DNA from: Siphonodentalium dalli
Taxonomy: Eukaryota > Mollusca > Scaphopoda > Gadilida > Siphonodentaliidae
Assembly: GCA_032622095.1 (NCBI GenBank)
Contig: CP136065.1
Location: 38,786,732 to 38,850,731 of the forward strand
DNA length: 64,000 nucleotides
Reading direction: 5' to 3'
Part shown: in pieces, positions 8,326 through 64,000 of the stretch
How the letters are laid out: each line of letters starts with the position of its first letter
Numbering within the stretch: position 1 is the stretch's first letter
The notes under the pieces: generated by a model
Database searches by the model: none
What the model was told of the DNA's origin: nothing
What the model saw: only the letters and a program-made list of their open reading frames with translations
Program-made: the position numbers and the translations under genes

Positions 8326-8355
8326 TTAACCCTTTACCCAACAGAACGGCCCTGT

Positions 8356-8519
8356 GCCAATGCATTCTCTTATATATGCGAGTCGACCATAGGTCGCCTC
8401 GCATATATAAGAGAATGCATTGGCTTAACACATTAAAAATTATAAAATTGTTAAAGAATGTAAGAAAAAATGGCCTATGGTCGACTCGCATATATAAGAG
8501 AATGCATTGGCACAGGGCA
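8356..8519. repeat. Palindromic cassette in type I MITE
   Basis: A 69-bp dyad (8356-8424) runs from GCCAATGCATTCTCTTATA to its complement around a CGACCATAGGTCG centre. An AT-rich spacer and an inverted half-copy ending GCATTGGCACAGGGC follow. The same cassette recurs at 15680, 17515, 21556, 26085, 33335, 35662, 50090, 57040, 60371 and 63744. Translation of either strand yields the recurrent MHWLN/QCILLYMR peptides, which are not real proteins. Confidence 0.9.
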
Positions 8520-8570
8520 TAACTGTAACTATCACAATGTGGGCAAGGAGCCGGTTCCAATGATATCCAT

Positions 8571-9368
8571 TTCACTTTCATTCGACCAATTTTAGAATAT
8601 GCCTCCCCCGTTTGGGATAATTGTCCGGACTACTTACGAGATGATATTGAAGACATCCAATATGAAATGGCGAGAATAGTTACCGGTGCAACCCGAAGTG
8701 TTAGTAATGCCAAGTTGATAAATGAGGCCGGGTGGGAATATCTTGACGATAGACGCAAGCAGCATAAATTGATCCAATTCTTCAAAATGAAAACCGGTAG
8801 GGCACCACCTTATATTAGTAATATGGTACCCCCAGAAAGTAACTCATTACATGACCACAACACTAGAAATACAATGAAACGTCCCCCTGGTAGTAATAAT
8901 GACTACTATATGCAATCCTTTCTTCCGTCGTCTGTCCGTTCGTGGAATGTACTCCCAGACTCTGTTAAAGAAGCAACTTCAATAGGCGATTTCAAACGCA
9001 ATCTTAAACCTGATATATTAAAGCCTAAGTACTACTTTACCAGCTATTCTAGGACAGCTCAAATTTACCACACCAGGCTGAGATTAAGATGTAGCAATCT
9101 TAACAGCGATCTAAAAGATAACCACCTCAAAGACTTGCCTTATTGCATGTGTGGTTGCATTGAAACTGCTAGACATTTTTTTCTGGAATGCGCGCAATAT
9201 ACCGCTCACAGAGAAGAACTTCTTAATACCCTATCTGATGTAACAATAACTAATGAATTATTACTATGGGGATCTGATGAAATATCCTATGAAACTAATA
9301 AGAAAATCTTCATGGCAGCTCAGAAATTTATAATAACCAGTAATCGCTTTCAACGATTCTTCTCTTAA
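8571..9368 (+). pseudogene. C-terminal part of LINE ORF2 (reverse transcriptase thumb and zinc-knuckle region)
   Basis: The frame is open from the insertion boundary to the stop at 9366-9368, about 265 residues. It begins with FIRPILEYASPVWD, the motif that follows the catalytic fingers/palm in Jockey/CR1-like reverse transcriptases. Next come an IEDIQYEMARIVTG segment and an RxWNxLP-like stretch (SVRSWNVLPDSV). A C-terminal CMCGCIETARHFFLEC motif (C-x-C-x8-H-x4-C) is typical of LINE ORF2 ends. The catalytic YADD portion was lost by 5' truncation, so it is dead on arrival. The open frame without a stop suggests a recent insertion. Confidence 0.85.
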
Positions 9369-9882
9369 GCTGTTCCAAAATTGCAATATTGAACTCGCAT
9401 GGTACATCATACACCGGGATGCTATTGATCTCTCCAACGTGGGTCGTCGGGTCGATGGACCACTGCAGATGTTCACATGGTTATTTTTCCAATCACAAAT
9501 TATGTATAAATACTTTTTATTTCCTTGAAATGTGTTATTATATATCTTTTTGGTTTATTTGAAATTAATTATATGCATGTTCAGATATATAATTACACCT
9601 CACACTCTGTACTCTCTGACATTCTCTCTAAAATTCTGACATTATCTTCTGTCCCTTTGTCTCGCCTCCACCTCATATTTCTTCTTTCTATCGATCTTTT
9701 TTATGCCTCTATTATTTACCCCTACTTGACTTGCAGTCAAGTAGGGCTGTGCCATTGTCAAGGGAGAGGGCTTCAAATAAGCCTATGGCTTGTTGCCTAA
9801 TCCCATTTTTCTTCTAAATTTGTATCTATTGTAATTATTTATATGAATGTCCATAGAGGGAAAAATAAATACTGTTTAAACT
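8571..9882 (+). mobile_element. 5'-truncated non-LTR retrotransposon (LINE) with target site duplication
   Basis: The insert is bounded by the 12-bp direct repeat AATGATATCCAT (8559-8570 and 9883-9894). The uninterrupted MITE at 25934 carries this sequence once (as complement, near 26027), which acts as the empty site. The insert starts in the middle of the reverse transcriptase reading frame. It ends with a 3' UTR containing AAAAATAAATACTG, as expected for target-primed reverse transcription with 5' truncation. Confidence 0.9.
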
Positions 9883-9988
9883 AATGATATCCATATTTGT
9901 ATGGTTCTATTGAGACAGACCGAAGATATTTTAGGTTGTTGAAGCTTTATTTGGCCGGTTTTGACCGGTTTGTTGGGTAAAGGGTTAA

Positions 9989-10699
9989 CACGTATCACTC
10001 GCTCTGAAATATCTTAATTGTACTCAGAAAGTGTTTATGTCGACAGTTTATCTGTAAAATAGATAGGTACAACCGATTATCAAAGAGTGGCGCGGCCACT
10101 TTCGAAAACATCGATGACAGTATGTCAACTCAAGAACAACTTTGTGTTGCCGTCAAAATGCTAAGGGTACTTCAATGTGCATGCTGTTTAGTTGGGCTCT
10201 GACAACAGCAATCAAGTTCACTTGACCAATTTGTTTCGCGTGAAATTATCTTTTTCTATGCGTCCCAGACATTGACATCTGATTATATGATTGTCATCTT
10301 AAAATTGCGTTCGTGGTTTCAGATATTTAATTAATACCTATTACACATCACCAGATATAAACAAATTGTGACGACGTTTCTTACCTACCATATATACACA
10401 TCAATGTTGCATATGGCACAATTTGAAGAGTTGTTAGATTCCAGACATTACATATAAAGGGTCATAACTACCAAACATATACAACCATTCAAGATAAAAT
10501 CTCTTTAATAAAACCGACGAAGAGTTTACAATATTTACGTCTCTGGATATATCTCATTCATAATCAGTACTGAATTGATGGGATTCCCTCCATTTCATTG
10601 GAGAGTGGCGAAGCACGCACGCGATTTCTTTGGTTATGGCATAACAGATTACTTCACAGATCAGAAGTCAATGATGTGTTGACAAGTTTCCCCATTGTC
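9989..10699. other. No gene recognised
   Basis: No long frame, terminal repeat or splice pair that I can support. Weak protein-like traces may belong to the decayed LINE that follows. Confidence 0.4.
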
Positions 10700-11620
10700 A
10701 AACTTAACTATTGTTGGAAAAATGAATACAGGCGATATACCCATAACTCATTTTACTCATCGCAATAGACGAGACATCATCCTCGAGTTTTTATCAGTCA
10801 ACGATATTCGTGACTGATTATTCTTTGGCATCTTGTTGTATTTATAACTATTTCTAAATACTACGATTCTCACAAACATTTACTTCGCCAGGAATACACA
10901 TATTTGGAAATGGTTTATTACGTCATGTTGAGAATGCCGCGTTGTTTGTTGAAATGAACATCACAGAAACAATGGAAAGAAATTGTAAAAGAGAAGATCA
11001 ACAACTTCGCATATCAAGAACCATGGTGTGATTCGACAAATGAATCACTGAATTTCTTTCGGAAGGTTAAATCCTATCCTATGTCGATCTGGAGAGGCTG
11101 GTTACTATGCAGGGAACACACAAAGTACAAAGCTAAAGCTCTCTATATGGCAAACATCATCTCCAGAACGACATATGACAACAACGCATTATACAAGCAT
11201 TATGGGTGCCAATACTCTATCCTCATGGCACTCATGTACCTCCATTGCTTCTCTCCGCATATACAGGAACTTAGAAATCAATTCTGGTATAAAATCATAA
11301 ATATATTCGGAATTCCCACATTTTCATTCCTGGATTTGCTCTCGTCGGTAGGATTCCTCACTTATGTATGCGGATGTGGAAGTCATCCTAATCTGGAACT
11401 CATATGTGATGAGAAACGTGAAACGTTTATTTATTCATTGTCTCATATTTATGTGTGTAATTTGTTCCATCTGACCAATGCAAAATGTGTGTCGTGTGAA
11501 AGAACGCATTATATCACGAGACTCGTATGACGCCTGCAGGTGTATATGAGCGCATATAATTGTATTTACTATATGTTGTACATAATATCTTCATTCATTG
11601 GAGGAATAAACAATTCAACA
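10700..11620 (+). pseudogene. Decayed LINE ORF2 C-terminus
   Basis: The open part (11081-11530) continues upstream in frame with YQEPWCDSTNESLNFF and FRKVKSYPMSIWRGW. It continues downstream with a segment resembling the R..FWxxIxxxxGI...L region that ends many LINE ORF2 proteins. A further upstream stretch (about 10905-10965) reads like GNGLLRHVENAALFVEMN in a different frame, implying at least one frameshift. The sequence after the stop includes AGGAATAAACAATTC, a plausible 3' end. No target duplication was found. Confidence 0.55.
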
Positions 11621-11629
11621 ACTCACATC

Positions 11630-12510
11630 CACAGTGCGAACTCTCTTTTTGGTATACAGGTAAGTCTCAGCCTGAAATAAGATAAAGGTAGCCACGACTC
11701 ATTATGTATGTCGTCTTGGTATCAATGAAGTTGATAGTGAAATTACACGGACCTCACAAATACATCTTCAAGGAAATGCCACAGCATATAGTTACAAATG
11801 TGGTTGAGTTCGCATATGCAGTCGCGTACAATTATTATCAAATACTACCGTTCACTTCCACGACACGAATATTGGGATTTTTGTTTAATGAAAATCTCAC
11901 CAGAAATGGTATTACATTAACCATAAATGTCGCTGCGGGCGAACAATGTATGAATAGCAATTATTATTTAAACAGATTACATATATAAGCAGAATACTGT
12001 AATATCTGCATGCGAGCTTTCTATCTGCCATCTCCTTTTATAACTACGGTTAATCCGCTGATCAAACTCATAGTCTATACTTAACAACTGTTATCTTTGT
12101 TTCTCAACGATAAATAACAGAAACACTGAGATTCAGAAAGCGACATGAGCGAAAACTAATAAAGATCCATATTGTAGTATTTCATTAGAAAGCACAATAC
12201 AGGCTAAACTACAGAGGAAGGAGAGTAACTCTTGTAGGATTCGTATAACTACAATACGCTATAGAGTTATTGCTCTTTGATTTAAAGAGTAATTGAAGTT
12301 ATACCTCCACAGGCGAAGTAGTATTTTAATTCATGGAATTTTGCATTACTATTCTTAGCAAACCTGTTCGATGCGCGAGTTTATAGGCACTTGGTAGTTT
12401 GGAACCCGAAGCTATGCATTACTGGCGTTTGTCGCATACCGACCAATCAGTTAAATACTGTTATACGGCCGCGGAAAGACTTATTAGAGGCAAATAATCT
12501 ATCGCCACCT
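11630..12510. other. No recognised gene; open frame 11704-11988 of unknown nature
   Basis: The 94-codon frame on + has no motif I recognise. A consensus-like donor CAG|GTAAGT sits at about 11658, but I cannot tie it to an exon. Confidence 0.3.
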
Positions 12511-12516
12511 TTTGAA

Positions 12517-12790
12517 GATAGTCCTCTTTTTCCTCGGCATGAAACAACGAACAGTGTGCGGTAAGTCTATTCCTAATACAGTAAAATTAGAGAGAGCCTG
12601 TGTCACTTGTGTGCTGTATATTGAAACTGTCCGATACAGTTCTATGATTTCTGAGTTCTTCAGAGTATTATATATGATATATATTGGAATTTCGTGTATT
12701 TATCGACTTATATTACACACACACAAATTACTTGAATGTTCGAATAGGCCATATCCAATTAAAGCAAAGAATCTGTCGCATCCTATATAA
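12517..12790 (+). repeat. First copy of a tandem duplication
   Basis: Landmarks GCATGAAACAACGAA, TCTATTCCTAATA, GATACAGTTCTATGATTTCT and GAATGTTCGAATA appear in the same order as at 12838-13230. This copy has only a short AGAGAGAG tract where the second copy has a long microsatellite. Confidence 0.85.
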
Positions 12791-12917: not shown

Positions 12918-13014
<97 letters not shown>

Positions 13015-13032: not shown

Positions 13033-13063
<31 letters not shown>

Positions 13064-15396: not shown

Positions 15397-15639
15397 AAAC
15401 ACCAATAACTGGCATCAGAAGTAATCATAAACAATTATCAATGACAACTTACAGTTCCATATGCATGCGCTGACCCAAAATGTATTTTTTTTATGAAAAT
15501 ATTGTTTGCCAAATTGTTTTAGAACTTGCCACATGATATCGGATTTATATTTTGGAAGCGGTGAATAAAATATTCTTTGCTTTGACAATGGCTCTCTCAA
15601 ATCAAAATCAGACACAATGTCCCTACATTTCGCATATGT

Positions 15640-16028
15640 GACCCGCCATATCAAATCCAGTCGGAAGTCGGGATTTTTTTACCCTGTGCCAATGCATTCT
15701 CTTATATATGCGAGTCGACCATATGTCGCCTCGCATATATAAGAGAATGCATTGGCCATACAATATTTTACAATTTTAATAATTTGTTCTTGTATTCTTT
15801 AACAATTTTATAATTTCACCCATACAGAGCCCCAGACAAACATGAGCAGACGACACTCTTCTATGTGCTTCTATATATGTGTGGGGCTCCCTGCAGGGTA
15901 ATGGATGTTTTTTTATTTTATGTCCTAAAAATTGTAAGAAACATTTATTTAAAAAACATGATAAAAAATTGTTAAGCCAATGCATTCTCTTATATATGCG
16001 AGGCGACCTATGGTCGACTCGCATATAT
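15640..16028. mobile_element. Type II MITE carrying the palindromic cassette, right end lost
   Basis: The left end TATGTGACCCGCCATATC continues through AGTCGGAAGTCGGGATTTTT into CCCTGTGCCAATGC. The interior includes ACAGAGCCCCAGACAAAC and GGGGCTCCCTGCAGGGTAAT, shared with 49809-50218 and 60366-60560. The second palindrome breaks off at GACTCGCATATATGAAAG, so the right inverted terminus is missing. Confidence 0.75.
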
Positions 16029-17200
16029 GAAAGTGAAAAATAATGTACCAGATGGATCAGTCTATACACCAAAGTCCGTTCCAGCGTTTATATAGAAGGT
16101 GAGAAAAACCTACCTCTTACCATCTATACACCAAAGACCTGGTTCAAGGGAATGAACTAAGGAATCCGAAATTGCTCATCCCGTACGAAGGACCTCTAGC
16201 CACGTCCCTGGCTGCGCCAATCTGATGATTGAGTACGATTGGTGACCTTTCTAATTGTTACTCAAACCGCAAACCACGGTTTAAGAGCGTCAATACTTGG
16301 ATTTCATATTTGCACCAAGAACATATTATACATGTTAAATAAAGCGAGTGAAAATGGGAGAGGAAATGAAAGACGAATTACATCATGATCCCCCAGATAC
16401 CCCGTTCTTATGTGCTTTATCTTCTAATAGCTGTACGCAAACACGATGATCGCAGTTGTATCAACAACTGCCGAGGGCGGGAATGTTGCTCAATGTAAAG
16501 TGCATGACACTTGCTGTCATATATACGGGGTATCTCCTACGTTCAAACTGAGATATACACGTTCAACCGCACCACTTATCACAGACTGCACCTCGTGAAT
16601 GTGTAATCAGTAACGCAGAATTCTATATTCATGCGATAAACGTAAATCTTTCATATGATATGCATTTGTTCTAATACTTCTAAAGTAATTCACCTTCCGC
16701 CTTTTAGTCCAATGGCATTTATTGGAGAGATTCAGTTACAAACTACACGTACGTGTGTTGCTATGGTGTTACGATAGAGGTAAACGGCAGTCGTATATCG
16801 ATGACAAGCGATTCAAACTTTGTTCGCGGCTGATGTCAACTATCTTCATTAACAAATATTTACATACTAAGTGTTGTCACCACTAAATCCAGCATTCTGA
16901 TTGGTCGGCGCCCACGTGGCTAGTTGCAGTTATTTCTCGGTGAATGCGCAACGCCTCATAACACCAAGCTCATAACACCATCGATACGTCATTGGGTTTG
17001 GAAAGACGAACGCGTAATGTTTTGGGCGCATTTGGACTCGCGCAGGATTGACTTAATACATCATCGGGTTTCAATATGAAGAGAAATTGTTCCTATTAAC
17101 TTTTGCCAAGGGTGCTATTGGGTATTTTGGGCTGTTTTTGTCACGATACACTTTTCTATTTAAATACATTTACAAAAGTGGCTTTTTCGCTAAATGTATA
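16029..17200. other. No gene recognised
   Basis: A short local repeat (CATAACACCAAG / CATAACACCATC near 16960) is the only structure seen. No coding support. Confidence 0.4.
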
Positions 17201-17369: not shown

Positions 17370-17467
17370 ATGATATTTCGATATTTTTACACATTTCGTT
17401 ACACGTTAGACACGAACGTTAGATAGTTCCCGCACATATATTGTGGCTCTTAGTTTATGTGCAGTAA

Positions 17468-18220
17468 CCCTTCCATGATTGGAGCTTTTTGCTTTTTTGT
17501 TGTTGCGAAAACCCTGTGCCAATGCATTGTCGTATATATGCGAGTCTCCCATGGGGGGCCTAGCCCATATATAAGAAAATACATTGGCCTAACAATATTT
17601 ACTTGACCTTATAAGCCAGGCATTCTCTTACATATGCGAGGCTCGAATGAGGAATGGTTATTACGACCATATACTCAACCACTATGGGATAGAACCATAC
17701 CTATATCTGGACACAATCAGTGACTCTACACTATGTTCTTTTCTTCTTGGAACAGAGGTAGTTACCATTCCCGACGAAGTGTTGCATCAAATGGAGCTTA
17801 TTATTCTGGACTCATCAACTTACTTGCTCACCATGTGTCGCTTTATTCGCGGGAACTCAAATTTATATTAGAGTAGCCAGTATATTGTTGTCATTGATAC
17901 ACGCCATGGTATCGATCATCGCTCGCATATACCATGTTATAACTAATACTGTATAAACATATACTCTCAACTCACACGCACATGGCTACGTTAAAACAAT
18001 ATACTACAGCTCTGTGTTGGTGTGTTTTCAACGACGTTGTGATAACCATATACATGTATATACCATATTGTAACCTTTATATATATTCTTCTCCACATAG
18101 GAGGCACACAATAAATATACATATGCGAGGCTCCATATGTGAGACTCGCATATATAAGAGAATGCACTGCCGCTACGTGCTATTTATTGCTGCACCAGCG
18201 CTTCTCCGGCCATGGAAGGG
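17468..18220. mobile_element. Type III MITE (CCCTTCCATG termini) interrupted by a LINE
   Basis: The left end is GTAA|CCCTTCCATG (17464) and the right end is CATGGAAGGG|TTAA (to 18224). Next to the right end is GCTGCACCAGCGCTTCTCC, a subterminal block also present at 33615, 35628 and 57010. The cassette inside is diverged (GCCAATGCATTGTCGTATA). The LINE piece 17645-18117 splits it. Confidence 0.75.
17645..18117 (+). mobile_element. 5'-truncated LINE 3' end with 16-bp target duplication
   Basis: It is bounded by TACATATGCGAGGCTC at 17629-17644 and 18118-18133, both inside the MITE palindrome. The 3' end is ACACAATAAATA. The coding remnant 17647-17871 reads YYDHILNHYGIEPYLYLD and then LLGTEVVTIPDEVL. 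This resembles the extreme C-terminus of LINE ORF2 proteins (compare the fragment ending at 11530). The rest is 3' UTR. Confidence 0.8.
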
Positions 18221-18224
18221 TTAA

Positions 18225-21498: not shown

Positions 21499-21908
21499 CA
21501 CATATATGACCCGCCATATCAAATCCAGTCGGAAGTCGGGATTTTTTTTACCCTGTGCCAATGCATTCTCTTATATATGCGAGTCGACCATAGGTCGCCT
21601 CGCATATATAAGAGAATGCATTGGCCTAACAATTTTTTATCATGTTTTTTAAATAAATGTTTCTTACAATTTTTAGGACATAAAATAAAAAACACCCATT
21701 ACCCTGCAGGGAGCCCCACACATATATGGGGCTCTGTATGGGTGAAATTATAAAATACAAGAAAAAATTATTAAAATTGTTAGGCCAATGCATTCTCTTA
21801 TATATGCGAGTCGAACTATGGTCGACTCGCATATATAAGAGAATGCATTGGCACAGGGTAAAAAAATCCCGACTTCCCGACTGGATTTGATATGGCGGGT
21901 CACATATG
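21499..21908. mobile_element. Type II MITE, complete copy with palindromic cassette
   Basis: Inverted termini of about 50 bp: ATGACCCGCCATATCAAATC at the left and GATTTGATATGGCGGGTCAC at the right. AGTCGGAAGTCGGGA and its complement lie inside these. The cassette with two full palindromes (21556-21625 and 21783-21852) flanks an interior containing ACCCTGCAGGGAGCCCC. A one-base difference (CTTCCCGACTGG) marks the right end. No transposase is present. Confidence 0.85.
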
Positions 21909-25929: not shown

Positions 25930-25933
25930 TTAA

Positions 25934-26315
25934 CCCTTTACCCAACAAACCGGCCAAAAACGGCCAAATAAAGCTGAAACAGCCTAAATTATCTTGGGTC
26001 TGTCTCAATAAAACCATACAAATATGGATATCATTGGAACCGGCTCATTGACCACATTGTGATGGTTACAGTTATGCCCTGTGCCAATGCATTCTCTTAT
26101 ATATGGGAGTCGACCATAGGTCGCCTCGCATATATAAGAGAATGCATTGGCCTAAAAAAAATCTTTTTTTACCATTTTTTCTTACATTGTTTAACAATTT
26201 TATAATTTTTAATGTGTTAAGCCAATGCATTCTCTTATATATGCGAGGCGACCTATGGTCGACTCGCATATATAAGAGAATGCATTGGCACAGGGCCCTT
26301 CTGTTTGGTAAAGGG
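25934..26315. mobile_element. Type I MITE, uninterrupted copy
   Basis: TTAA|CCCTTTACCCAACAAACC starts at 25930 and GGTAAAGGG|TTAA ends at 26319. The left part contains CATTTGTATGG-type sequence and ATGGATATCATTGGAACCGG, the intact form of the site where the LINE at 8571 landed. The right part is the palindromic cassette (26085-26297) with two dyads around an AT-rich spacer. Confidence 0.85.
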
Positions 26316-26319
26316 TTAA

Positions 26320-31089: not shown

Positions 31090-32260
31090 TTCAGATTATC
31101 CAAAACCTCGATAAAACATACTTAAATCAATGTGGGACGTGAAAACTAACATCGGCTTCTATAAGGCCTCCGATGAAGTTTCACGTAAATATGCATTGCT
31201 GCCGCTTAGAGAAATAGTCCTAGATATATAAAGACTCTTTCACCAATTTAATGAAGTATATGTAATGAAATAACCTTTCAAACTATTCATTCGCTAGAGT
31301 GTTGTTGGAAAAATAATGGAAGCCATAGTATTTTGAGACTTAGATTACGGAATGTAAACAGACGACAGACCGGAAGTCAAACTTCACCTGGAGCTATTTC
31401 CTGTTATGAAACGAACGTTCAATATAACAATTTATAGAATGAATTTATTGAATTGAATATGGGTATAATCATGTAATAAATATGTATACATGTATGTGTT
31501 AGACGTTTAGCACAGGGTCAGGAACTTTAATGCCATGCATGTGTATTCTATATTCTCTGAGCATTATTTTCTCTGTGGTGTAAAACTGTTTGAAAATGTG
31601 TTCGCGTGTAGTGTGGATGTCAACATTCGAACTTCAAACGTTCTATGTTTTCAGTTTGAAAGCTAGATTATGCTTTGATGCATGTAGTCTTATAGACGTT
31701 GACATGCATCTTTCAACGGAAATTAAGCACAAGGGGTTTTGCTAAAGAAATCGAGTACAAGCAACACATATATCAATGAATCAAACTTAGAAACGAGCAT
31801 GCCCCCTTTAACAATCGCATCTCTATTAACATAGTGCTGCGTTTGTGAAGTTGGCAAACATCGCCACAATTATATTGTCGTTATACACAGATAGCAATCC
31901 ACTTGAAAGCGGAAATATGCAACAAGAGATAAACAAAATATATTATTGTGTGACATGGTCTGGCTCCAATTAACTATGTCAGTAATTCTGACCTCTAATT
32001 TGAGTTGCATGGTTGTATCACCCACTCAAATCTACACAAACGCATGCAAAACATAATTGCACTTTACATAATGCTTTATAGCCGTAAGTACATATTGCGC
32101 AGGGAGCTCCATATACATATTTACTTCCAGTGTGCCCATGAACGTGTTCTGAATAGATCAGTTCTCATACCTCACTCACGTGAAGACCAAGAGAAAATAT
32201 ACCAAATGAGCATAACTGGCTTTATATATAGAGAGCAGATATTGTGACAGCCAAGGTCAA
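31090..32260. other. No gene recognised
   Basis: No coding or repeat structure that I can support. Confidence 0.4.
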
Positions 32261-32269
32261 GGTAAATAT

Positions 32270-32418
32270 TGTTAGGCCAATGTATTCTCTTATATACGCG
32301 AAGCTCCATTCTCTTATATACGCGAGGCTCCATTCTCTTATATACGCGAGGCTCCATTCTCTTATATATGCGAGGCTCCACGTATGAGTCTCGCATATAT
32401 AAGAAAATGCTTTGGCAC
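32270..32418. repeat. Cassette fragment with a 24-bp half-palindrome tandemly repeated
   Basis: Four successive units containing CATTCTCTTATATACGCG plus AGGCTC fill 32283-32378. They are followed by the closing half GACTCGCATATATAAGAAAATGC-like sequence. It is a type III cassette whose left half-arm was multiplied. Confidence 0.85.
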
Positions 32419-32961
32419 CAGGGGGGGGGGGGGGGATTTTTTTCCTTCCGGGCACGTATGCCGGGGTGGGTGGGTGGTCGATGGGACCAACAAACAATTG
32501 TTTCTGCAACTCAAAATGTTTTCTCCTGCAAGTTTTTTGACTGTTTTTGCAATGAGTTTGGCTTAAAACACATTAGAATAAGAGAAATAATGTAATTCTA
32601 ACTGCTAAACTGACTGCAGGCAGTTATCGTGTTGTATTTTGTTGCAAATTTTGAAATCCAAGATGGCAGCCATGTTTTTTGGCCGAATGACCGCAAAATG
32701 ACCGTTCCTTTTACATGTCAATGTTAACATCCATGACAAATAGTATGCACAGACATTCAGATACATCTGTTTACAGTGAATTTACCCGTGCAAATCTCTG
32801 TTTTAGTGTTAAAAGGTGGGGGGTGGGCGTCCAAAAATGGTCGAAAAAAAAAACTGCCGAAAACGGAAAACATTTTGGACGCGGGGTGGGTGGGTCCCAA
32901 CATGGGTCGAAAGGCAAAAATCAGCATACGTGCCTGAAAACATTTTCTGACCCCCCCCCCC
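32419..32961. mobile_element. hAT-like non-autonomous element, copy 1
   Basis: It begins CAGGGGGG, then has CCGGGCACGTATGCCGGGGT. It ends with CATACGTGCCTGAAAACATT, then CTGACCCCCC. CAGGG...CCC(T)G termini are typical of hAT elements. Copy 2 (37767) shares the body, including GACTGCAGGCAGTTATCGTG and TTGAAATCCAAGATGG. The left flank is the end of the palindromic cassette. A target duplication is not clear here. Confidence 0.7.
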
Positions 32962-33294
32962 AAGAAGCTCCATTCATGGAATGGTTATACCGTGGCCCAT
33001 CGATGACTTGTTTCAATGCTGATATCCATGGTAAATTATTAAAACCCTAAATCTTCCAAAAACAAAGCTATATCTACAAATTAATGGATTCATTGATAAA
33101 CCGTATATCTATAGTGTGAGCATTGGTTTGTATTTTCTTTTGAAAATATGTTGTTTGTACAAGTTGATGGATAGGACATCTTCCAAAATGACACTGCTTT
33201 TCAATTCGTTTTTAAAATTTCATTTAACCTAGTAAAACAATGAGTGTCCTAGATTTACAATATAAGAGTTCAAGCTCTGTGATTTTAACCCTTT
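32962..33294. other. No gene recognised
   Basis: No supported feature. Confidence 0.4.
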
Positions 33295-33298
33295 CATG

Positions 33299-33654
33299 CA
33301 TGACTAGAGTTTTATTATTTGTTTGTGAAAACCCTGTGCCAATGCATTATCTTATATATGCGAGTCTCCCACAGTGAGCCTCGCATATATAAGAGACATT
33401 GGCCTAACAATATTTACCTTGACCTTGTAAGCCAGTGCATTATCTTATATATGTGAGTCTCCCATAGTGAGCATCACATATATACTCGCATATATAAGAG
33501 AATACATTGGCCTAACAATATTTACCCCGACCTTGTAAGCCAGTGCATTATCTTATATATGCGAGGCTCCCTACTGGAGACTCGCATACATAAAGCATGC
33601 AATGACACAAGCTCTTTAACGCTGCACCAGCGCAGCTCCCGCCATGAAAGAGAC
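33299..33654. mobile_element. Type III MITE with palindromic cassette
   Basis: TTAA|CCCTTTCATGCATGA at the left, and GCTGCACCAGCGCAGCTCCC then GCCATGAAAGAGACTAA at the right. It has three diverged palindromes (near 33345, 33430 and 33548) separated by GGCCTAACAATATTTACC-like spacers, one more than usual. Piggybac-type TTAA target at the left; the right TTAA is degraded. Confidence 0.75.
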
Positions 33655-35610: not shown

Positions 35611-35617
35611 ATCTTAA

Positions 35618-35868
35618 CCCTTCATGGCGGGAGCTGCGTTGGTGCAGTATTAAAGACCCTGTGCCAAAGCATTCTCTTATATATGCGAGTCTTATGGAGC
35701 CTCGCATATATAAGGGAATGCACTGGCATTTAAGGTCAATGTAAATATTGTTAGGCCAATGTATTCTCTTATATATGCGAGGCTCCCTATGGGAGACTCG
35801 CATATATAAGAGAATGCATTGGCACAGGGTTTTCGCAAAATTCAGGAGAAACTCCAGTCACGGAAGTG
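35618..35868. mobile_element. Type III MITE with palindromic cassette
   Basis: TTAA|CCCTTCATGGCGGGAGC (35614) and CGGAAGTG|TTAA (to 35872) are the ends. GCTGCGTTGGTGCAG near the left end is the subterminal block of this type. Two palindromes have centres GAGTCTTATGGAGCCTC and GAGGCTCCCTATGGGAGAC. This is the shortest copy in the window, with about 250 bp. Confidence 0.8.
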
Positions 35869-35872
35869 TTAA

Positions 35873-49808: not shown

Positions 49809-50218
49809 ATATGTGACCCGCCATATCAAATCCAGTCATAGGTCGCCTCGCATATATAAGAGAATGCATTGGCCTAACAATTTTTTTTACAATTTTAATA
49901 ATTTGTTTTTGTATTCTTTAACAATTTTATAATTTCACCCATACAGAGCCCCTGACAAACATGAGCAGGCGACACTCTTCTATATGCTTCTATATATGTG
50001 TGGGGCTCCCTGCAGGGTAATGGATGTTTTTTTATTTTATGTCCTAAAAATTGTAAGAAACATTTATTTAAAAAACATGATAAAATATTGTTAAGCCAAT
50101 GCATTCTCTTATATATGCGAGGCGACCTATGGTCGACTCGCATATATAAGAGAATGCATTGGCACAGGGTAAAAAAATCCCGACTTCCGACTGGATTTGA
50201 TATGGCGGGTCACATATA
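49809..50218. mobile_element. Type II MITE with deleted first palindrome arm
   Basis: ATATGTGACCCGCCATATC at the left goes straight from AAATCCAGTC into ATAGGTCGCCTCGCATATAT. The AGTCGGAAGTCGGGA block and the first half-palindrome are therefore deleted. The right side is complete: second palindrome 50096-50164, then CCGACTTCCGACTGG and GATATGGCGGGTCACATAT. Confidence 0.8.
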
Positions 50219-53893: not shown

Positions 53894-54269
53894 AATATGT
53901 TCAAATCAGTTCCAGTGATGGTTCGTGAACGACATTAAAATCTGCCGAAAATGTGAGACTAACCCACGCAGCACATTACGTCAGCCCAATATAAGATTTC
54001 CAAGCACTTAGTAACGATTAATACGTGATCGATACAGATAACTGGTTTCATGCAGGTGCAATTCGGCTGAACTTTAAAAAGCACGCCCAATTATCCTGCT
54101 GGCCGCTTTTAGTAATTAGGTCAACAATTTGTGACGTCGTGTTCGTGCACACTACAGTCAGTGTTATTGGGGTATGAAACACGTGACCCAGTTGGCAGTT
54201 GACCAATCACAAAACAGGTTTTAATGTAACACAAACGGGCTATATATGTAAATATATATGCATGAACAT

Positions 54270-56440
54270 TGAATTGTATGTTATTTGTGGGTTTATGAAC
54301 ATTGAGTTATACATTTTGCGTGGGTTTATGAACATTGAATTATACATTTTGCGTGGGTTTATGAACATTGAATTATACATTTTGCGTGGGTTTATGAACA
54401 TTGAATTATACATTTTGTGTGGGTTTATGAACATTGAATTATACATTTTGCTTGGGTTTATGAACATTGAATTATACATTTTGCGTGGGTTTATGAACAT
54501 TGAGTTATACATTTTGCGTGGGTTAATGAACATTGAGTTATACATTTTTCTTGGGTTTATGGACATTGAGTTATACATTTTGTGTGAGTTTATGAACATT
54601 GAGTTATACATTTTGCGTGGGTTTATGAACATTGGGTTATACATTTTGGGTGGGTTTATGAACATTGAATTATACATTTTGGGTGGGTTTATGAACATTG
54701 AATTATACATTTTGCGTGGGTTTATGAACATTGAATTATACATTTTGTGTGTGTTTATGAACATTGAATTATACATTTTGTGTGGGTTTATGAACATAGA
54801 ATTATACATTTTGCGTGGTTTATGAACATTGGATTATACATTTTGCGTGTGGGTTTATGAACATTGAGTTATACATTTTGGGTGGGTTTATGAAGATTGA
54901 ATTATACATTTTGCATGGGTTTATGAACATTGAATTATACATTTTGCGTGGGTTTATGAACATTGAATTATACATTTTGCGTGGGTTTATGAACATTGAA
55001 TTATACATTTTGCGTGGGTTTATGAACATTGAGTTATACATTTTGCGTGGGTTTATGAACATTGAATTATACATTTTGCGTGGGTTTATGAACATTGAGT
55101 TATACATTTTGCGTGGGTTTATGAACATTGAATTATACATTTTGGGTGTGTTTATGAACATTGGATTATACATTTTGCGTGGGTTTATGAACATTGAGTT
55201 ATACATTTTGCGTGGGTTTATGAACATTGAGTTATACATTTTGCGTGGGTTTATGAACATTGAATTATACATTTTGCGTGGGTTTATGAACATTGAGTTA
55301 TACATTTTGCGTGGGTTTATGAACATTGAATTATACATTTTGGGTGTGTTTATGAACATTGGATTATACATTTTGCGTGGGTTTATGAACATTGAGTTAT
55401 ACATTTTGCGTGTGGGTTTATGAACATTGAGTTATACATTTTGCGTGGGTTTATGAACATTGAATTATACATTTTGCGTGGGTTTATGAACATTGAATTA
55501 TACATTTTGTGTGGGTTTATGAACATTGAGTTATACATTTTGCGTGGGTTTATGAACATTGAATTAAACATTTTGCGTGGGTTTATGAACATTGAATTAT
55601 ACATTTTGCGTGGGTTTATGAACATTGAATTATACATTTTGCATGGGTTTATGAACATTGAATTATACATTTTGCGTGGGTTTATGAACATTGAATTATA
55701 CATTTTGGGTGTGTTTATGAACATTGGATTATACATTTTGCGTGGGTTTATGAACATTGAGTTATACATTTTGCGTGTGGGTTTATGAACATTGAGCTAT
55801 ACATTTTGCGTGGGTTTATGACCATTGAGTTATACATTTTGGGTGGGTTTATGAACATTGAATTATACATTTTGCGTGTGGGTTTATGAACATTGAGTTA
55901 TACATTTTTTGTGGGTTTATGAACATTGAATTATACATTTTGTGTGGGTTTATGAACATTGAATTATACATTTTTCGCGGGTTTATGAACATTGAGTTAT
56001 ACATTTTGTGTGGGTTTATGAACATTGAATTATACATTTTGTGTGGGTTTATGAACATTGAATTATACATTTTTCGCGGGTTTATGAACATTGAATTATA
56101 CATTTTTCGCGGGTTTATGAACATTGAATTATACATTTTGCGTGTGGGTTTATGAACATTGAGTTATACATTTTGTGTGGGTTTATGAACATTGAATTTT
56201 ACATTTTGGGTGGGTTTATGAACATTGAGTTGTACATTTTGGGTGGGTTTATGAACATTGAGTTATACATTTTGCTTGGGTTTATATGAACATTGAATTA
56301 TACATTTTGGGTGGGTTTATGAACATTGAGTTATACATTTTGCTTGGGTTTATATGAACATTGAATTATACATTTATCGTGGGTTTATGAACATGGATTA
56401 TAAATTTTGCATGGGTTTATGAACATTGAAATATATATTG
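54270..56440. repeat. 33-bp minisatellite, about 65 units
   Basis: The unit is GGGTTTATGAACATTGAATT then ATACATTTTGCGT. Because 33 is a multiple of three, both strands stay open: + gives GFMNIELYILR repeats and - gives MYNSMFINPRK repeats. Units with an extra GT (GCGTGTGGG) or a missing G (GCGTGGTTTATG) shift the frame and split the frames at about 54820, 55400, 55780 and 56140. Variant units recur in blocks. I see no signal, splice or composition evidence that it is translated. Confidence 0.95.
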
Positions 56441-56534
56441 TGCACAGGAATATGGTAGTCCGAGCAATTCCAATTAATCTGATGAATCCCAGAGACCTCG
56501 CACAGCGATCGCCAAAATCATTAAAGTACAGAAT

Positions 56535-56735: not shown

Positions 56736-58270
56736 GTGATAAATTGACAATTGGCACCTAATTTCTCACACGATTGAATATCGAAAGATACTTAATCGGG
56801 GGTCGCGATTATAGAGCGATAGGTACATATTCAATCTGAGTAACACGTGCCACGCGATGTTAAGATTATATATCAAATTGAGTATCCTGATTATTCGGAA
56901 ATAAGGGGGGGGTAACCCATTATATATAGAGCGCGTAACATACATATGACTAAATAACGGAGTTTTCTCTGAAACAGTTTATAAATAAGTCTTGAACCTT
57001 TTCATGACGGGAGCTGCGCTGGCGCAACATTAAAGACCCTGTGCCAATGCATTATATTATATATGAGAGAGTGAATTGGCCTAAGCATTTTTTATCATTT
57101 TTTTATCATGTTTTCTTACATTCTATAACAATTTTTATCATTTTTTCTTATATTCTTCAACAATTTTATCATTTTTATAATTTGTTCTTTCATTCTTTGT
57201 CAATTTTTATCATTTTTTCTTACATTGATTAATTTTTTTTATCATTTTTGTATCATTATTTCTTACATTTTTTAACAATTATAAAAAATAATATAAAATG
57301 TGTTAGGCCAATGAATTCTCTTATATATGCGAGGCGACCTATGGTCGACTCGAATATATAAGAGAATGCATTGGCACACGGTTTTCCCAACATTTCAATA
57401 AGCTCCACAAGCTATATACTTTTGTCGTCAATAAGTCACTGCACCTATTACCCACACGCTTGTCTACCAAAAGATAACTAATCGGGGTTCACGATTACAT
57501 AGCTATTGGTATATAATCTCGACCACAGGTGGCACGCGAGGCTTCGATTGAGTAATATATTCAATCTGCAGGGTGATAACTCTATATAAAATGTACTTTG
57601 ACGAAATAACTGAGATTTGTATGACATATTTTGCAACACCACAATTGGTCAACTCTGGTGAAATATAAGTCAAATTCTTCTATTGTATTGGTTAGCTTTA
57701 CGCTCTTTAAAACACTTCTTTAAATATATCCGTTATTTCGTTAATAATAATCGCTATGTAACAGTCTGTTTCGTTATTTCGCTGAGTTTCCTATTTCTAT
57801 ATTTCGCGAATTTCGCTGCATTTCCTACTCCGCTATTTTCCTGTGTTTCCTATTTCGCTTTTTCTTTGTATTTAATATTTCGATAATTCGCTATATTTAA
57901 CATATTATGGGATATGGGATTATGTAGGATATCCTATATTCTGATATTCAACCGAACATCCCGTGCCACGTAATACTGGATTAACTATCATTAGATTCCG
58001 AATCCCGAATCCCGATTACATATTGTTTGCTATATAATCCTTGTAGTATTGGCTAGTCAAATTCACCTATACTGTGGAGGTTTTGGCTGCTCTTGAAAAA
58101 ACCCTTATCTTAAATAGGTACTGTACACTAAATCCGACCATTTATGGCACCATCTCCTTTTATACTCAACAGAATGTATGCAACAAATGAATGAACTTCA
58201 GCCATGGATTAGTGCAAAATACACTCATGTATTTCGCTGACTGAAACCTTTCTCAATCTTGTTTTTTTTA
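56736..58270 (+). repeat. Diverged tandem repeat block with a MITE between units
   Basis: TACTTAATCGGGGGTCGCG near 56789 and AACTAATCGGGGTTCACG near 57477 head similar stretches. These continue through GATTA(C/T)A, GGTA(C/T)AT, TGCCACGCGA/GGCACGCGAG and GACTAAATAACGGAG/GACGAAATAACTGAG. A third weak unit follows near 57990. The type III MITE at 56995 sits between units 1 and 2. Confidence 0.5.
56995..57395. mobile_element. Type III MITE, degraded, with palindromic cassette
   Basis: ACCTTTTCATGACGGGAGCT and GCGCTGGCGCA at the left belong to the type III terminus. The first palindrome is collapsed (GCATTATATTATATATGAGA). The interior has repeated TTTTTATCATTTTTTCTTAC units. The second palindrome near 57308-57371 is well kept and ends GCACACGGTTTTCCC. 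Confidence 0.7.
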
Positions 58271-59549: not shown

Positions 59550-59780
59550 AATTAACGCTCCCAAATTACTATTTCCTGGCTTCGAGGTCAAAAATATTTG
59601 ATTCGAGTCGAGGAACCCACCATCGAAGTTCAGAGTGATCAGATATCGATTTTTGAAATCTATAATTTTTTTACCACGGATAATTATAGTGGCCCAGTAA
59701 CATGTTTTACGAGAAGACGGTCCCGGACCAAATTGCGGATGAAGATGGATAACTCTAAAAATCAAGTGACTCTGTTGTGT
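59550..59780. repeat. Dispersed repeat, copy 2
   Basis: ATTTGATTCGAGTCGAGGAA, GTGATCAGATATCGATTTTT and CGGACCAAATTGCGGAT match 24050-24220. Confidence 0.6.
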
Positions 59781-60194
59781 CAGATATTTGACAATAGTAT
59801 ATACCATTTAAAAGAGGAAGCTCCAAAACATTGTATTATCAACTTATTCGGTGTAATAAACTGTGAAAATGTTGTTGTTTTTGTTGAGAAACCGACGTGT
59901 GTTCTGTGCTCAAGTTTCATTATTTTCAATGGAATGTGAATAACTCTGTATATTAATATATAGTGTTATTCCCCTTCCATTGAAAATATTTTTTTAGTTT
60001 GAATTCTGTTGCATTCTTGGAGCCATAACGGGGGAAATGTTTATGTTATTTCAGCTAATTTCTATATCTCTATGGGGACCTTTTGATACAGACATTCCAA
60101 ATAGTGATGAATTATAGTATCTTAATCATATTTTATGGCATAGATTGTTATTAAAACCGTATATCAAGTCACTATAAAAAATAGATGGTGACTC

Positions 60195-60260
60195 GAAAAT
60201 TAAGTGGGCATTTAAAGATGCGGTGGGTATTGATTGCTGTTAAAATAGTCACATCGGTTA
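60195..60260. repeat. Fragment of the TTAAAGGCACG MITE family
   Basis: TTTAAAGATGCGGTGGGTAT then TGCTGTTAAAATAGTCACAT matches one end of that family only. Confidence 0.5.
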
Positions 60261-60365
60261 ATACCACCAGCTTGTGGTGTTTTTTTTATGTTGCTATGGT
60301 GTCGTTGGGTCTTTTTGCTTTAGCTATGGGGTTGGTTGGGCCCTGCTGGTTTATCTATGATAATA

Positions 60366-60560
60366 TAATACCCTGTGCCAATGCATTCTCTTATATATGC
60401 GAGTCGACCATATTTTACAATTATTTACAATTTTAATAATTATTTTTTATATATTCTTTAACAATTTTATAATTTTACCCATACAGAGCCCCAGACAAAC
60501 ATGAGCAGACGACACTCTTCTATATGCTTCCATGTATGTGTGGGTCTCCCCGCAGGGTTA
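60366..60560. mobile_element. Type II MITE fragment
   Basis: CCCTGTGCCAATGCATTCTC begins the cassette, which breaks at GAGTCGACCATATTTTAC. The interior ACAGAGCCCCAGACAAAC and GGGTCTCCCCGCAGGGTTAT matches 15780-15900. Both outer termini are missing. Confidence 0.75.
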
Positions 60561-60779
60561 TTCACACTTTAAGCTGTGAGCTTGTAGGTCTTTTTGATGT
60601 TGTCCTGAGCTTGTGGGTCTTTTTGATATTACTATGATGCCGGTGGGCTTGTTGCTTTAGCTATGGGGTTGGTGGGTCCGTGTGATTGATATTAGGTTTA
60701 ATTCAAGCATAATGCACTGATGATGCAATAACGTGATGTTGTTGATATTTCCTACTGAACATTGTTCTCTTCTTTTCAG

Positions 60780-60890
60780 AAAGTTTTGCTACGGGACAAT
60801 GGCGTATTGTATTAAAGGTCCAATGGGTCCTGTACTATATATCGACTGTTGCCGCTCCTGTCGTCTCGATGCTGTATTGGACTATGCGAG
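60780..60890 (+). CDS. Rolling stone-like protein, next internal exon
   Basis: The acceptor CTTTTCAG|AAAG and donor ATGCGAG|GTAACC bound 111 bases. Joined in phase to the exon at 58398, it reads ESFATGQWRIVLKVQWVLYY and ISTVAAPVVSMLYWTMRG. The W.L..I...AA..VS..YW pattern is the third membrane helix of rolling stone-like proteins. It ends in phase 1. The following exon, which should carry the conserved His/Asn membrane region, is not found before 64000. Confidence 0.78.
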
Positions 60891-60894
60891 GTAA

Positions 60895-61590
60895 CCATTA
60901 TTAACCCTTAATATACTGAATGGGATCTCCCAATCAGTTATATAGCTATACATTGGAATGGTATAATATTCATTTGGAGGGGTGTTAAGGTAATAAAAGC
61001 AGACGACAGACAGAAAAACAGATAATACAAGAGTAGAATAATTCATATTCATTGGTGGGAATTACTCGTCAATGAGTATTTTGTATAGAAATGGTTAATA
61101 GCTTAGATTCCAAAATCCGACGTTTGCATGGAGAATCTAGATACATTCCATTTCACCACCACATGACACACATAGTCCATGAACATACGACTTGGATAAT
61201 CAGAGCAAAGCTCTATTCTGAGCGATAGCTCTGTCATGCGCACAGACCAATCACACACCCTGTGTATTATGGTAATGGGATGGGATACCATCTTGGTATC
61301 TTGTTTGTGTAAGTTTTCAATTCTCATATTCATTAAACTGCTTCGTTTCAATATCATCTACGTGCAGATGTACGCTATGCCATGGTCCACAATAGTCCCG
61401 AGGTGTCAGATTCAACACTACTTTGTACAATGTTATGTGACCATCCAGCTATACACCAAGCGCAATTTGAATCACTGTGAATCAGTGATTTTGACGAAAG
61501 ATTTCAGATATTGACTCATGTTCTCTGAATTTGCTATCTAATTGGAATAGTAGGTATATCCTTCATGTAAGAATACACGAAACCACGCAT
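60895..61590. other. Downstream intron sequence, no further exon found
   Basis: No acceptor followed by a compatible rolling stone-like peptide was seen. The frame 61236-61514 is not recognised. Confidence 0.45.
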
Positions 61591-61597
61591 ATATGTG

Positions 61598-61890
61598 TTA
61601 GGGTTAGGGTTAGGGTCAGGACTAGGGTTAGGGTTATGGTTAGGGTTAGGGTTAGGGCTAGGGTTAGGGTTAGATTTAGGGTTAGGGCTAGGGTTAGGGC
61701 TATATGGTTAGAGTTAGAGTTAGGGTTAGGGCTAGGGTTAGGGTTAGACTTAGGGCTATGGTTAGGGTTGGGGCTACGGTTAGGGCTAGGGTTAGGGCTA
61801 GGGTTAGGGTTAGACTTAGGGCTATGGTTAGGGTTGGGGCTACGGTTAGGGCTAGGGTTAGGGCTATGGTTAGGGTTAGAGTTAGGTGGT
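61598..61890 (+). repeat. Interstitial telomere-like array (TTAGGG variants)
   Basis: Runs of GGGTTAGGGTTAGGG are mixed with CTAGGG, TTAGAC, TTAGAT and TATGGTTAGG variants. A longer unit (GACTTAGGGCTATGGTTAGG) occurs twice, so part of the array was duplicated. Frames giving RVRVRV and LGLGLG are repeat translation. Confidence 0.95.
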
Positions 61891-61892
61891 TA

Positions 61893-62550
61893 GTGTATTC
61901 TAATGTATTCTGGATTTTGGATAAGATATATTCTACCGATATACTGAATATGTGCTTCAGTCATAATGGGACATTTTATGGAACAATATAGACTATATAG
62001 TTTAAATTATTGGAATTTTCGAACCGAAATGCGACCTTTGTGAGTAATTACTACATGCTTTGTATATTCACTGTGTCGCCAGACATGGCTCAGATGGACC
62101 AGTCTGATAACATAGCACCGAAATGGCTAACTTCACTCTAACACACATGAGATTTGCCGTGACGCAAGCCCACTAACATCAAGCGTATAATTGTATAACT
62201 CGAGTTAGATTGAGCTCTCGGAAAGACGGTACGAAACACCTACGCGGAATTAGCTGCAACCTTTCAAATGTCAAATGTACCGCGCTGCGTTTGTAGTGCG
62301 TTACTTGACCTGACACGGGATGGCCTGTCTGTTTGATCATTGCAATCTTCTTCTTTGTTCACAGCGCGGTTTTTTTGGAAGGTCGAGCATAATACTACAT
62401 GACTAATCAAAGCACATCTTCCCAAAACCAGTAACAATTTAACAATTAAACGACGTTTAGTGTAAAATGCATCGTTCCCATGTATGTAGACGACGAAATG
62501 GATTGGTTTTATTGGTGGAGAAAAGACCACACGCTTGTAACTTGCGACAG
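61893..62550. other. No gene recognised
   Basis: The - frame 62264-62530 is not recognised. Confidence 0.4.
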
Positions 62551-62552
62551 TC

Positions 62553-62870
62553 TAAAGCCGCTTTCACACATGTCCGTTTCTCCGATGCGTTTCCTTGCGT
62601 TTCTAATATTTTAACGCATCCTTAAAACGCATCGATCAAAACAGTGATAATATCACTGGGTCTTTCACACATGTGCGTTTGCCGGATGCGTTTCTTTTTT
62701 TTCAAGTCTCGGACTTGAAATGCTGCGTTTCGCCTGCGTTTCTAAAAAAGCATACACAAGCATGTGTGGATAGCTTCACTATTTCGACCGATGCGTTTTC
62801 CGGATGCGTTAAAATATTAGAAACGCAAGGAAACGCATCCGAGAAACGGACATGTGTGAAAGCGGCTTTA
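62553..62870. mobile_element. TA-flanked foldback MITE
   Basis: TAAAGCCGCTTTCACACATG at the left and CATGTGTGAAAGCGGCTTTA at the right are exact complements. The arms continue through GTTTCTAATATTTTAACGCA and its complement for about 75 bp. TA on each side could be a Tc1/mariner-type duplication. A second, inner repeat of TTTCACACATGTGCGTTTG lies at 62662. No transposase. Confidence 0.85.
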
Positions 62871-63702
62871 ATGCGATATGCCCCTCTTCGATATAGGGCT
62901 ATAACGCACCTGCACTTGGAAACATATACATGTACCGCCAGTATTTCAGGATCTTATAGCATCACACCGGTGTAGTTTTTCTCAGTCATTGTCGATGCCC
63001 GCTAATCAACTGAGCACGTTGCCGAAAATTTTTGTGTGATAGTAATGACGTTATGTGACCTTATGCCGATTCATGCGATTGAATATTCCAGCATGGATTA
63101 TCCAGTCTGGCTCGTTAATGTTAATGGACTAGGTATTGGCTTTCTTTTACCTACTGATGGTAATCAATAACTGATTGTTTATACAGAAGCGGCTGGACCA
63201 TCGGAGCTGACATTGTGTACATATGGGTAATTTGACCCGGGAATGTTATTAGATAGGTCCTGTTGACATCAGATGTCTCCATAACATATGGTTTCTCGAC
63301 CGCGTACTCAATAAGCAAAATTATTATACACATTGAGTTCACAGTTCTGTTTTTTAATTGGACGAAGCGTGATAAAATGTCAGAGAGTAGTTTTGACCAT
63401 TACCCGCCCGCTGACGTCACGAGGCGTGAGGCGGCAGTTGTGTCATATAAAATGCAACACGCATTGACTGCCTTTGGTGGCATAGCGAAAGCTATTTTCC
63501 CACGACTTCTGAACAGCACTCAGCACTATTGACGCCAGCCTGCGTGCTGCTTGCCGTTCAAAGGACCACCCCGGATAGAGTATATACTCTACGAACATAG
63601 CTTCAGTTACTATACAAAGAGCGAGCTGATTTCATCTTCACACTGATATGTTGATACGTATTATCGTAAAACCCTGGTACAATACGCGCAACATTTCTCT
63701 GT
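62871..63702. other. No gene recognised
   Basis: The frame 63263-63532 shows no known domain. Confidence 0.4.
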
Positions 63703-63706
63703 TTAT

Positions 63707-64000
63707 CCCTTTCGTGACTGGCGCTTCCTGAATTTTTCCGAAAACCCTGTGCCAAGGCATTCTCTTATATATGCGAGTCGACCATAGGTCGCCTCGCATA
63801 TATTAGATAATGCATTTGCCTAATAAATTTTATATTATTTTTTATAATGAAAAATGATTTTTTTTAGCAAATTGTTAAAGACTGTAAGAAAAAATTATAA
63901 AAAATGATAAGAAGTATCAAAGAATGTAAGAAACATTGATAAACAAATTGTTAGGGGATGCATTCTCTTATATATGGGAGGCGACCTATGGTCGACTCGC
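63707..64000. mobile_element. Type III-like MITE with cassette, cut by the window edge
   Basis: TTAT|CCCTTTCGTGACTGGCGC is followed by TTCCGAAAACCCTGTGCCAA and the first palindrome (63751-63818). An AT-rich spacer and the start of the second palindrome follow, running off the edge at GGTCGACTCGC. Confidence 0.75.

What the first reader, a model, noticed from the sequence alone, without database searches (positions are those of the whole stretch)
8349..64000. One palindromic cassette inside three MITE types with unrelated ends
The same core (CCCTGTGCCAATGCATT, 69-bp dyad, AT-rich spacer, inverted dyad, AATGCATTGGCACAGGG) occurs in at least 11 loci. Its outer context differs: TTAA|CCCTTTACCCAACA (type I), TATGTGACCCGCCATATC (type II) and TTAA|CCCTTNCATG with GCTGCRCCAGCGC (type III). 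The boundary is always at the CCCTG/CAGGG edge. Either the cassette is itself mobile and enters other MITEs, or MITEs exchange outer ends while keeping it. The palindrome centre also differs by type (CGACCATAGGTCG against CTCCCATAGTGAG or similar). This modular behaviour is the best candidate here for something undescribed.
Basis: partly seen in the sequence, partly recalled or inferred. Interest (0 to 1): 0.75.

Follow-up and report, generated by a model that had tools for sequence, protein, structure and literature searches.

The report
Shared hairpin core in unrelated mini-transposons
In this 2.2-billion-base genome one double-hairpin DNA core sits inside at least four kinds of small transposons with unrelated ends, and at least one element combines the ends of one kind with the core of another, which shows one way such elements can diversify.

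Summary
The edge CCCTGTGCCAATGCATT occurs 17 times in 12 window loci (0.2 expected) and about 253,000 times in the 2.23 Gb genome. The core (two inverted 69-bp palindromes around an AT-rich spacer) lies between unrelated ends: type I (TTAA|CCCTTTACCC), II (2-bp, mostly TA, duplication), III (TTAA|CCCTTTCATG) and a fourth, IV (TTAA|CCCTTTGAGTGCC). Ends of different types align no better than shuffles. The majority palindrome of I, II and IV is identical over 69 bp.

Most likely the core is a passenger amplified by its carriers and swapped between them by recombination. One element read in full has type I ends around a type II core; its right junction is at 360 places, the other 359 unread. No exact cassette-free join of types I or II was found. 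Stand-alone cores look rare (5 of 28 selected loci, 4 insertions); independent movement is possible but not proven.

Coral CMITEs (Wang 2010) already show different ends with one conserved interior. New here: scale, a second duplication class, the double hairpin, the recombinant. New variant of a known kind.

The parts
8326..9988 (.). Type I element (TTAA|CCCTTTACCC ends), core 8350-8517, long arm split by about 1.4 kb of other sequence
   Evidence: ends at 8326-8343 (+) and 9971-9988 (-); core
15637..16033 (+). Type II element, left end and core with inverted palindrome; right end not found
17464..18224 (+). Type III element, diverged, core edge at 17512
21505..21904 (.). Type II element, complete, TA on both sides, core 21551-21858
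   Evidence: inverted repeat I1 with 137-nt arms
25930..26319 (.). Type I element, complete, core 26077-26295
   Evidence: DNA fold of the core -98.1 kcal/mol, z -23.0
32252..32988 (-). Degenerate copy assigned to type III by eye; core edge 32406-32422 separated from its outer end (32964-32988) by another repeat
33285..33646 (+). Type III element with repeated palindromes
35614..35872 (.). Type III element, complete, core 35657-35829, palindrome centre CTCCC/GGGAG on one side
49812..50214 (.). Type II element, left half of the core truncated, right core edge at 50169
56993..57420 (+). Type III ends around a modern-type core (57037-57381) with GTCGACC centre in its right palindrome and the AT-rich repeat spacer
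   Evidence: the right limit is estimated
60371..60557 (+). Short form: core edge, half palindrome, spacer, ending at CCCCGCAGGG; flanks of no known type
63703..64000 (+). Type III end with modern-type core, runs off the window

Best explanation
The cassette is the shared interior of a clan of non-autonomous DNA transposons. Types I, III and IV insert at TTAA with CCCTT(T) ends (piggyBac-like); type II makes a 2-bp, mostly TA, duplication. The carriers move and multiply as whole elements using transposases made elsewhere. The core spreads between carriers because it is long, nearly identical and palindromic: a break or fork collapse at one hairpin is repaired from the core of another element, which puts a core between foreign ends, and some chimeras then multiply. 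Shown: unrelated ends, an identical palindrome consensus in I, II and IV, no exact cassette-free join of types I or II, one type I/type II chimera whose right junction is at 360 places, and two type III copies with the modern core. Inferred: that those 360 places are copies of the chimera, the repair route, the transposases, and the first origin of the core, perhaps an old TA-inserting foldback element.
For: Outer ends: in 18 between-type comparisons none stands out from shuffles (lowest: 43 of 300 shuffles at least as high), while the two ends of types I, III and IV align with each other (0 of 300 shuffles each). The majority palindrome of I (19 + 19 rows), II (44) and IV (9) is identical over 69 bp with 0.7-1.2 changes per copy. 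Empty type I by exact join (0-12 bases between): 2 places, both with core remnants, against about 54,500 ends per strand. Empty type II by exact join (0-20 bases): 0 places, against about 14,400 ends per strand. Chimera: the L090+L092 core matches a type II core in 358 of 368 columns, its left end reads CCCTTTACCCAACAGAACGG, its right arm matches type I in 62 of 62; the junction is at 176+184 places at up to 2 mismatches, 0 in the reversed control. Target duplications: TTAA on both sides in 15 of 18 type I pairs; the same dinucleotide in 19 of 22 type II pairs, 15 of them TA. piggyBac-type transposase frames without stops exist: 128 matches in all, best E 2.2e-94.
Against: Only one chimeric copy was read; the other 359 junction places may hold another core, and its own flanks are TGAA and TTAA, not a perfect pair. 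No discordant ends were seen among 48 core pairs typed on both sides, out of 61 pairs joined, so exchange is rare. Five of 28 selected loci (4 distinct insertions) look like stand-alone cores with TA on both sides, which favours some independent movement. The exact-join searches would miss mutated or rearranged cassette-free copies, and types III and IV were not searched for them. The 601-bp windows beside 3 of the transposase genes showed no matching element end.
Confidence: 0.6

Rival explanations
1. The core is itself a mobile TA-inserting MITE (ends CCCTG...CAGGG) that jumped into each carrier and still jumps on its own.
For: Type II boundaries read TTTTTTTA|CCCTG...CAGGG|TAAAAAAA, as expected for insertion at TA. 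Stand-alone-looking copies L060/L064 (short form), L063, L066 and L077 have TA on both sides; L066 has a non-type-II spacer and flanks of no known type. L016:880 is similar. L091 keeps the short form's right end with TA and a foreign flank, but its left edge is degraded. The chimera's right junction also falls on a TA.
Against: Type I (ATG|CCCTG...CAGGG|CCG) and type III (AAAA|CCCTG...CAGGG|TCTTT) show no TA. TA on the left was imposed by the search pattern, and type II already has TA on the right, so L060, L063 and L077 could be trimmed type II copies; L016:880 has type-II-like bases on both sides. No empty site for L060 was found at up to 3 mismatches. Window 60371 has TT, not TA, on the right. 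Stand-alone copies are few: 4 of 20 loci with CTA (all CTA places listed) and 1 of 8 with GTA, which scales to very roughly 150 edges against about 253,000.
Confidence: 0.25
2. The double hairpin is a transposition enhancer usable by different transposases, so unrelated ends multiply only if they acquire the core.
For: The type III-b majority palindrome (3 rows) differs from that of I/II/IV at 3 base pairs, all changed on both sides; III-a (10 rows) differs at 2 such pairs plus one one-sided change. Within 62 resident modern copies 0 of 35 changed pairs are compensated. Pair covariation exceeds the shuffle mean on all five measures.
Against: No function tested. Hairpin-templated repair during copying would also keep symmetry. 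Most of the covariation comes from two centre pairs that separate two clades, so few events; the number of pairs with a both-sided change (7) is matched by one slid control (7 at +1, 6 at -1). In the 9 old copies 5 of 36 changed pairs are two-sided against their own majority.
Confidence: 0.1
3. All types descend from one element whose outer ends diverged while the core stayed conserved.
For: Types I, III and IV share TTAA|CCCTT.
Against: Outer parts do not align beyond CCCTT(T) and type II shares nothing above shuffles, while the majority palindromes of I, II and IV are identical.
Confidence: 0.05

Closest known systems
Coral CMITEs (Wang et al. 2010, PMC2872659; passages and sections 10 and 15 read)
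   Same: TTAA-flanked MITEs whose ends (CCCTTT-type in most families) differ while a 75-bp interior is more conserved than the ends; one element had the interior of another family; piggyBac-like transposases in the genome.
   Different: CMITEs are about 100 bp and about 1,600 copies in A. millepora, with TTAA duplications; here complete cores of about 170-370 bp with two 69-bp palindromes, about 126,000 edges per strand, one carrier with a 2-bp duplication, and a chimera junction at 360 places. Sequence similarity of the two interiors was not tested.
Modular pearl-family MITEs of bivalves (PMC5139131, passages read)
   Same: Modular non-autonomous elements with internal repeats similar to other repeats; in one of them a palindrome near the repeat junction.
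   Different: Their shared part is a satellite-like tandem repeat; here it is a palindrome pair. The host group of this genome is not known.
Galileo elements of Drosophila mojavensis (PMC3573991, abstract and outline only)
   Same: Foldback-like inverted repeats and exchange of sequence between copies, suggested to lead to new subfamilies.
   Different: Exchange there is among copies of one transposon, not between carriers with unrelated ends.

Membership tests
piggyBac/TTAA MITEs (types I, III, IV) | TTAA target duplication | tested here: met
   15 of 18 type I pairs TTAA/TTAA, the other 3 altered or offset on one side; TTAA is seen beside many type III and IV ends but was not counted there
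piggyBac/TTAA MITEs (types I, III, IV) | CC[C/T]T terminal motif | tested here: met
   CCCTTTACCC, CCCTTTCATG/CCCTTCCATG, CCCTTTGAGTG; the motif definition is from PMC2872659
piggyBac/TTAA MITEs (types I, III, IV) | A piggyBac transposase with the same ends in the genome | tested here: inconclusive
   128 PF13843 matches; no matching end in one 601-bp window beside each of 3 of them
CMITE-like group | Different ends around one conserved interior | tested here: met
CMITE-like group | Homology of the interior to the coral CMITE interior | not testable with these tools
   the coral interior sequence is not in the text read; no animal genome collection is on hand
Tc1/mariner-type MITE (type II) | TA target duplication only | tested here: inconclusive
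   of 22 pairs, 15 TA/TA, 3 TT/TT, 1 TG/TG and 3 unequal: a 2-bp duplication, not strictly TA
Tc1/mariner-type MITE (type II) | Matching transposase | not tested

The most novel reading that the evidence does not exclude
The core is a hyperparasite of transposons: a double-hairpin module that turns unrelated ends served by different transposase classes into high-copy elements, and spreads among them by recombination so that new carriers keep arising.
Probability: 0.15. Interest if true: 0.8.

Novelty: new variant of a known kind. Interest (0 to 1): 0.5.

Why it matters
Where MITE families come from is an open question. Here one genome holds the parts: carriers with unrelated ends, a common core, a chimera whose junction is at hundreds of places, and rare stand-alone-looking cores. 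That makes the order of events and the role of the palindrome testable by reading junctions, by population polymorphism and by transposition assays.

Tried and rejected
One ancestral element: rejected by alignment of the outer parts against shuffles. Free-moving cassette as the main mode: disfavoured by the base before the edge and by the rarity of stand-alone copies. Compensation in resident modern copies: 0 of 35 changed pairs; that class is defined by four centre letters, so compensated changes at those two pairs could not appear in it, and 8 rows with mixed centres were set aside. Empty site for the L060 insertion: none found. Transposase ends matching types I, III, IV beside 3 piggyBac-type genes: none in the 601-bp windows read. 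Rfam on the window: no match at gathering scores. Pfam on 7 open frames of the window: none at E 0.01. Exact 33-mer in viral contigs and exact 29-mer in the bacterial and archaeal genome collection: none. Literature for the 13-mer GTGCCAATGCATT: no paper.

Rows dropped: palindrome rows that were not 69 long or had more than 14 differences (I_long 24 to 19, I_short 20 to 19, II 55 to 44, III_a 19 to 10, III_b 8 to 3, IV 9 to 9), palindromes with indels or without a left edge, one of the 80 selected rows (window:32348-32416). Overlapping or duplicate loci: L003, L005, L006, L007, L008 and L053 were left out, and L064 and L065 also. Remaining doubles: L040 and L078 have the same flanks, L061 and L065 the same insertion, L052 gives two overlapping pairs, and L026 there is a chance match.

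Sampling limits: L001-L008 and L041-L055 are the first matches on C1; L029-L040 and L056-L083 were picked by place from match lists; so these are not random. The only near-random sample is the 20 loci L009-L028, 6 of which hold an edge. One search pools those with the window, which was itself selected.
Full report
What is there. The window lies in a 2.23 Gb genome of nine contigs. The edge CCCTGTGCCAATGCATT is found 17 times in the window at up to 3 mismatches against 0.20 expected, in 12 loci, and 126,620 + 126,415 times in the genome at up to 2 mismatches against 35 for the reversed control. The exact 33-mer of edge and palindrome arm occurs 123,984 times. A complete core is edge, 69-bp palindrome, AT-rich spacer, inverted palindrome, edge. 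One core folds as a single DNA strand at -98.1 kcal/mol, z -23.0.

Carriers. In the window plus 20 loci of 10 kb placed at fixed steps in the genome, 42 edges were typed: 15 type I, 9 type II, 11 type III, 2 type IV, 5 unassigned by score; by eye 3 of those 5 are type III (window 33332, window 32422, L009:7480) and 2 are a short form (window 60371, L016:880). Cores cluster: 6 of the 20 loci hold any edge. Genome-wide, type I ends number 54,480 + 54,553 against 198 for the control and type II ends 14,370 + 14,436 against 0, both at up to 2 mismatches. Type I pairs are flanked by TTAA on both sides in 15 of 18. Type II pairs have the same dinucleotide on both sides in 19 of 22: 15 TA, 3 TT, 1 TG. 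Type IV (TTAA|CCCTTTGAGTGCC) carries one palindrome in each of 7 loci scanned, 6 of which also show the type IV right end.

One core, unrelated ends. Outer parts of different types do not align above shuffles; the two ends of one type do (ends of types III and I_short were typed templates, the rest single copies). Yet the majority palindrome of types I, II and IV is letter-for-letter the same. A spacer unit near TTCTTACATTCTTTAACAATTTTATAA is found in 13 of 19 cores tested: 3 of 3 type I, 2 of 3 type II, 2 of 4 type III, 3 of 3 stand-alone and 3 of 3 short-form cores, but 0 of 3 type IV; 0 of 200 shuffles matched in each case. Type III copies are more diverged (5.3 changes per 69 in III_a, 10 rows; 2.3 in III_b, 3 rows) and have another centre.

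The palindrome changes in pairs between lineages. The III_b majority (3 rows) differs from that of I/II/IV at six positions that form three base pairs; the III_a majority (10 rows) differs at two of these pairs plus one one-sided change. Among 62 resident modern palindromes, 35 changed pairs are all one-sided or broken (the class is defined by its centre letters, so changes at those two pairs are excluded). In 9 old copies 5 of 36 changed pairs are two-sided against their own majority. The pair count on 79 palindromes (40 distinct) gives 31 two-sided cells against 8.7 in shuffles, mostly from two centre pairs; the number of pairs with a two-sided change, 7, is matched by one slid control. So symmetry seems restored or selected in source elements rather than maintained in young resident copies, on few independent events.

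Does the core move alone? The edge is preceded by C or T in 1,043 of 123,984 exact cases. Of 15 such loci read (two overlap), 13 belong to types I-III, some truncated on the far side, one is a type II copy without its left end (L044) and one is unclear (L048). Exact edges with C or G before TA number 406. Of 28 of these read (20 CTA, 8 GTA), 15 are type II, 5 type IV, 1 type I, 1 type III, 1 unclear (L069) and 5 look stand-alone: L060 and L064 (one insertion, duplicated), L063, L066 and L077. All five have TA on the right too, but only L066 has a core unlike type II, so the others may be trimmed type II copies. The empty site of L060 was not found. Of 5 short-form ends read that are followed by TA and a base other than A (252 exact places), 3 are ordinary type II, 1 is the chimera below and 1 (L091) has a foreign right flank and a degraded left edge.

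Were the carriers ever without it? Type I arms joined without a core, exact letters and 0-12 bases between: 2 places, both with core remnants. Type II, exact and 0-20 bases: none. So, as far as exact joins can tell, the core was in place before types I and II multiplied. Cassette-free versions of types III and IV were not searched.

A recombinant. L090+L092 (C1:81685108-81685640) has the type I left end, a core that matches a type II core in 358 of 368 columns (a type I core aligns with 141 gap columns), and then TATTTTAGGC..., the type I long arm from an internal TA onward, 62 of 62 identical to L036, ending in GGGTTAA; its left flank is TGAA. Its right junction is at 360 places at up to 2 mismatches, with none in the control. 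Window 57037 and 63745 are type III ends with the modern centre and spacer.

Mechanism. Carriers move as wholes; piggyBac-type transposase frames are present (128 matches, best E 2.2e-94), although none was tied to these ends. The core changes carriers by recombination at homologous, hairpin-prone cores; the chimera's right junction falls on a TA shared by both parents, which fits either a short-homology join or TA insertion. The first origin of the core as a TA-inserting foldback element is a plausible inference, not shown.

Known relatives. Coral CMITEs have different TTAA ends and a shared interior, whose origin 'remains a mystery' in the authors' words (PMC2872659; passages, sections 10 and 15). 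The modular pearl elements of bivalves were seen as passages (PMC5139131) and Galileo as abstract and outline (PMC3573991). Searches for print on this arrangement were made, of which I saw listings only, apart from these three papers; one search returned only the CMITE paper and nothing. The library lacks most subscription journals, so absence there is weak evidence.

Noticed in passing
L029 and L030 (C1:4495900-4497850 and C1:4549480-4551400): 1.4 kb elements with type II ends and half-palindrome inverted repeats whose interior encodes a Bcl-2 family protein (L030:602-1138, 179 aa, PF00452 E 1.8e-13; L029 frame shorter, 148 aa, E 9.6e-11). Copy number unknown: the search did not complete.
   Followed up: partly
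C1:820017-920855 and C1:94237018-94292256: Edge hits recur about every 11.2 kb and about every 7.9 kb: large tandem units that carry the core.
   Followed up: no
window 54262-56443: 33-bp tandem array, about 66 copies.
   Followed up: no
window 61597-61886: GTTAGG-rich array resembling telomere repeats; the telomere resemblance is recalled.
   Followed up: no
window 8529-9368: Open frame of 279 aa inside the split type I element that looks by eye like the end of a retroelement reverse transcriptase; no Pfam match at E 0.01.
   Followed up: partly
L035 (C1:1989240-1989590): Type I element with a single palindrome instead of two, as from recombination between its two palindromes.
   Followed up: no
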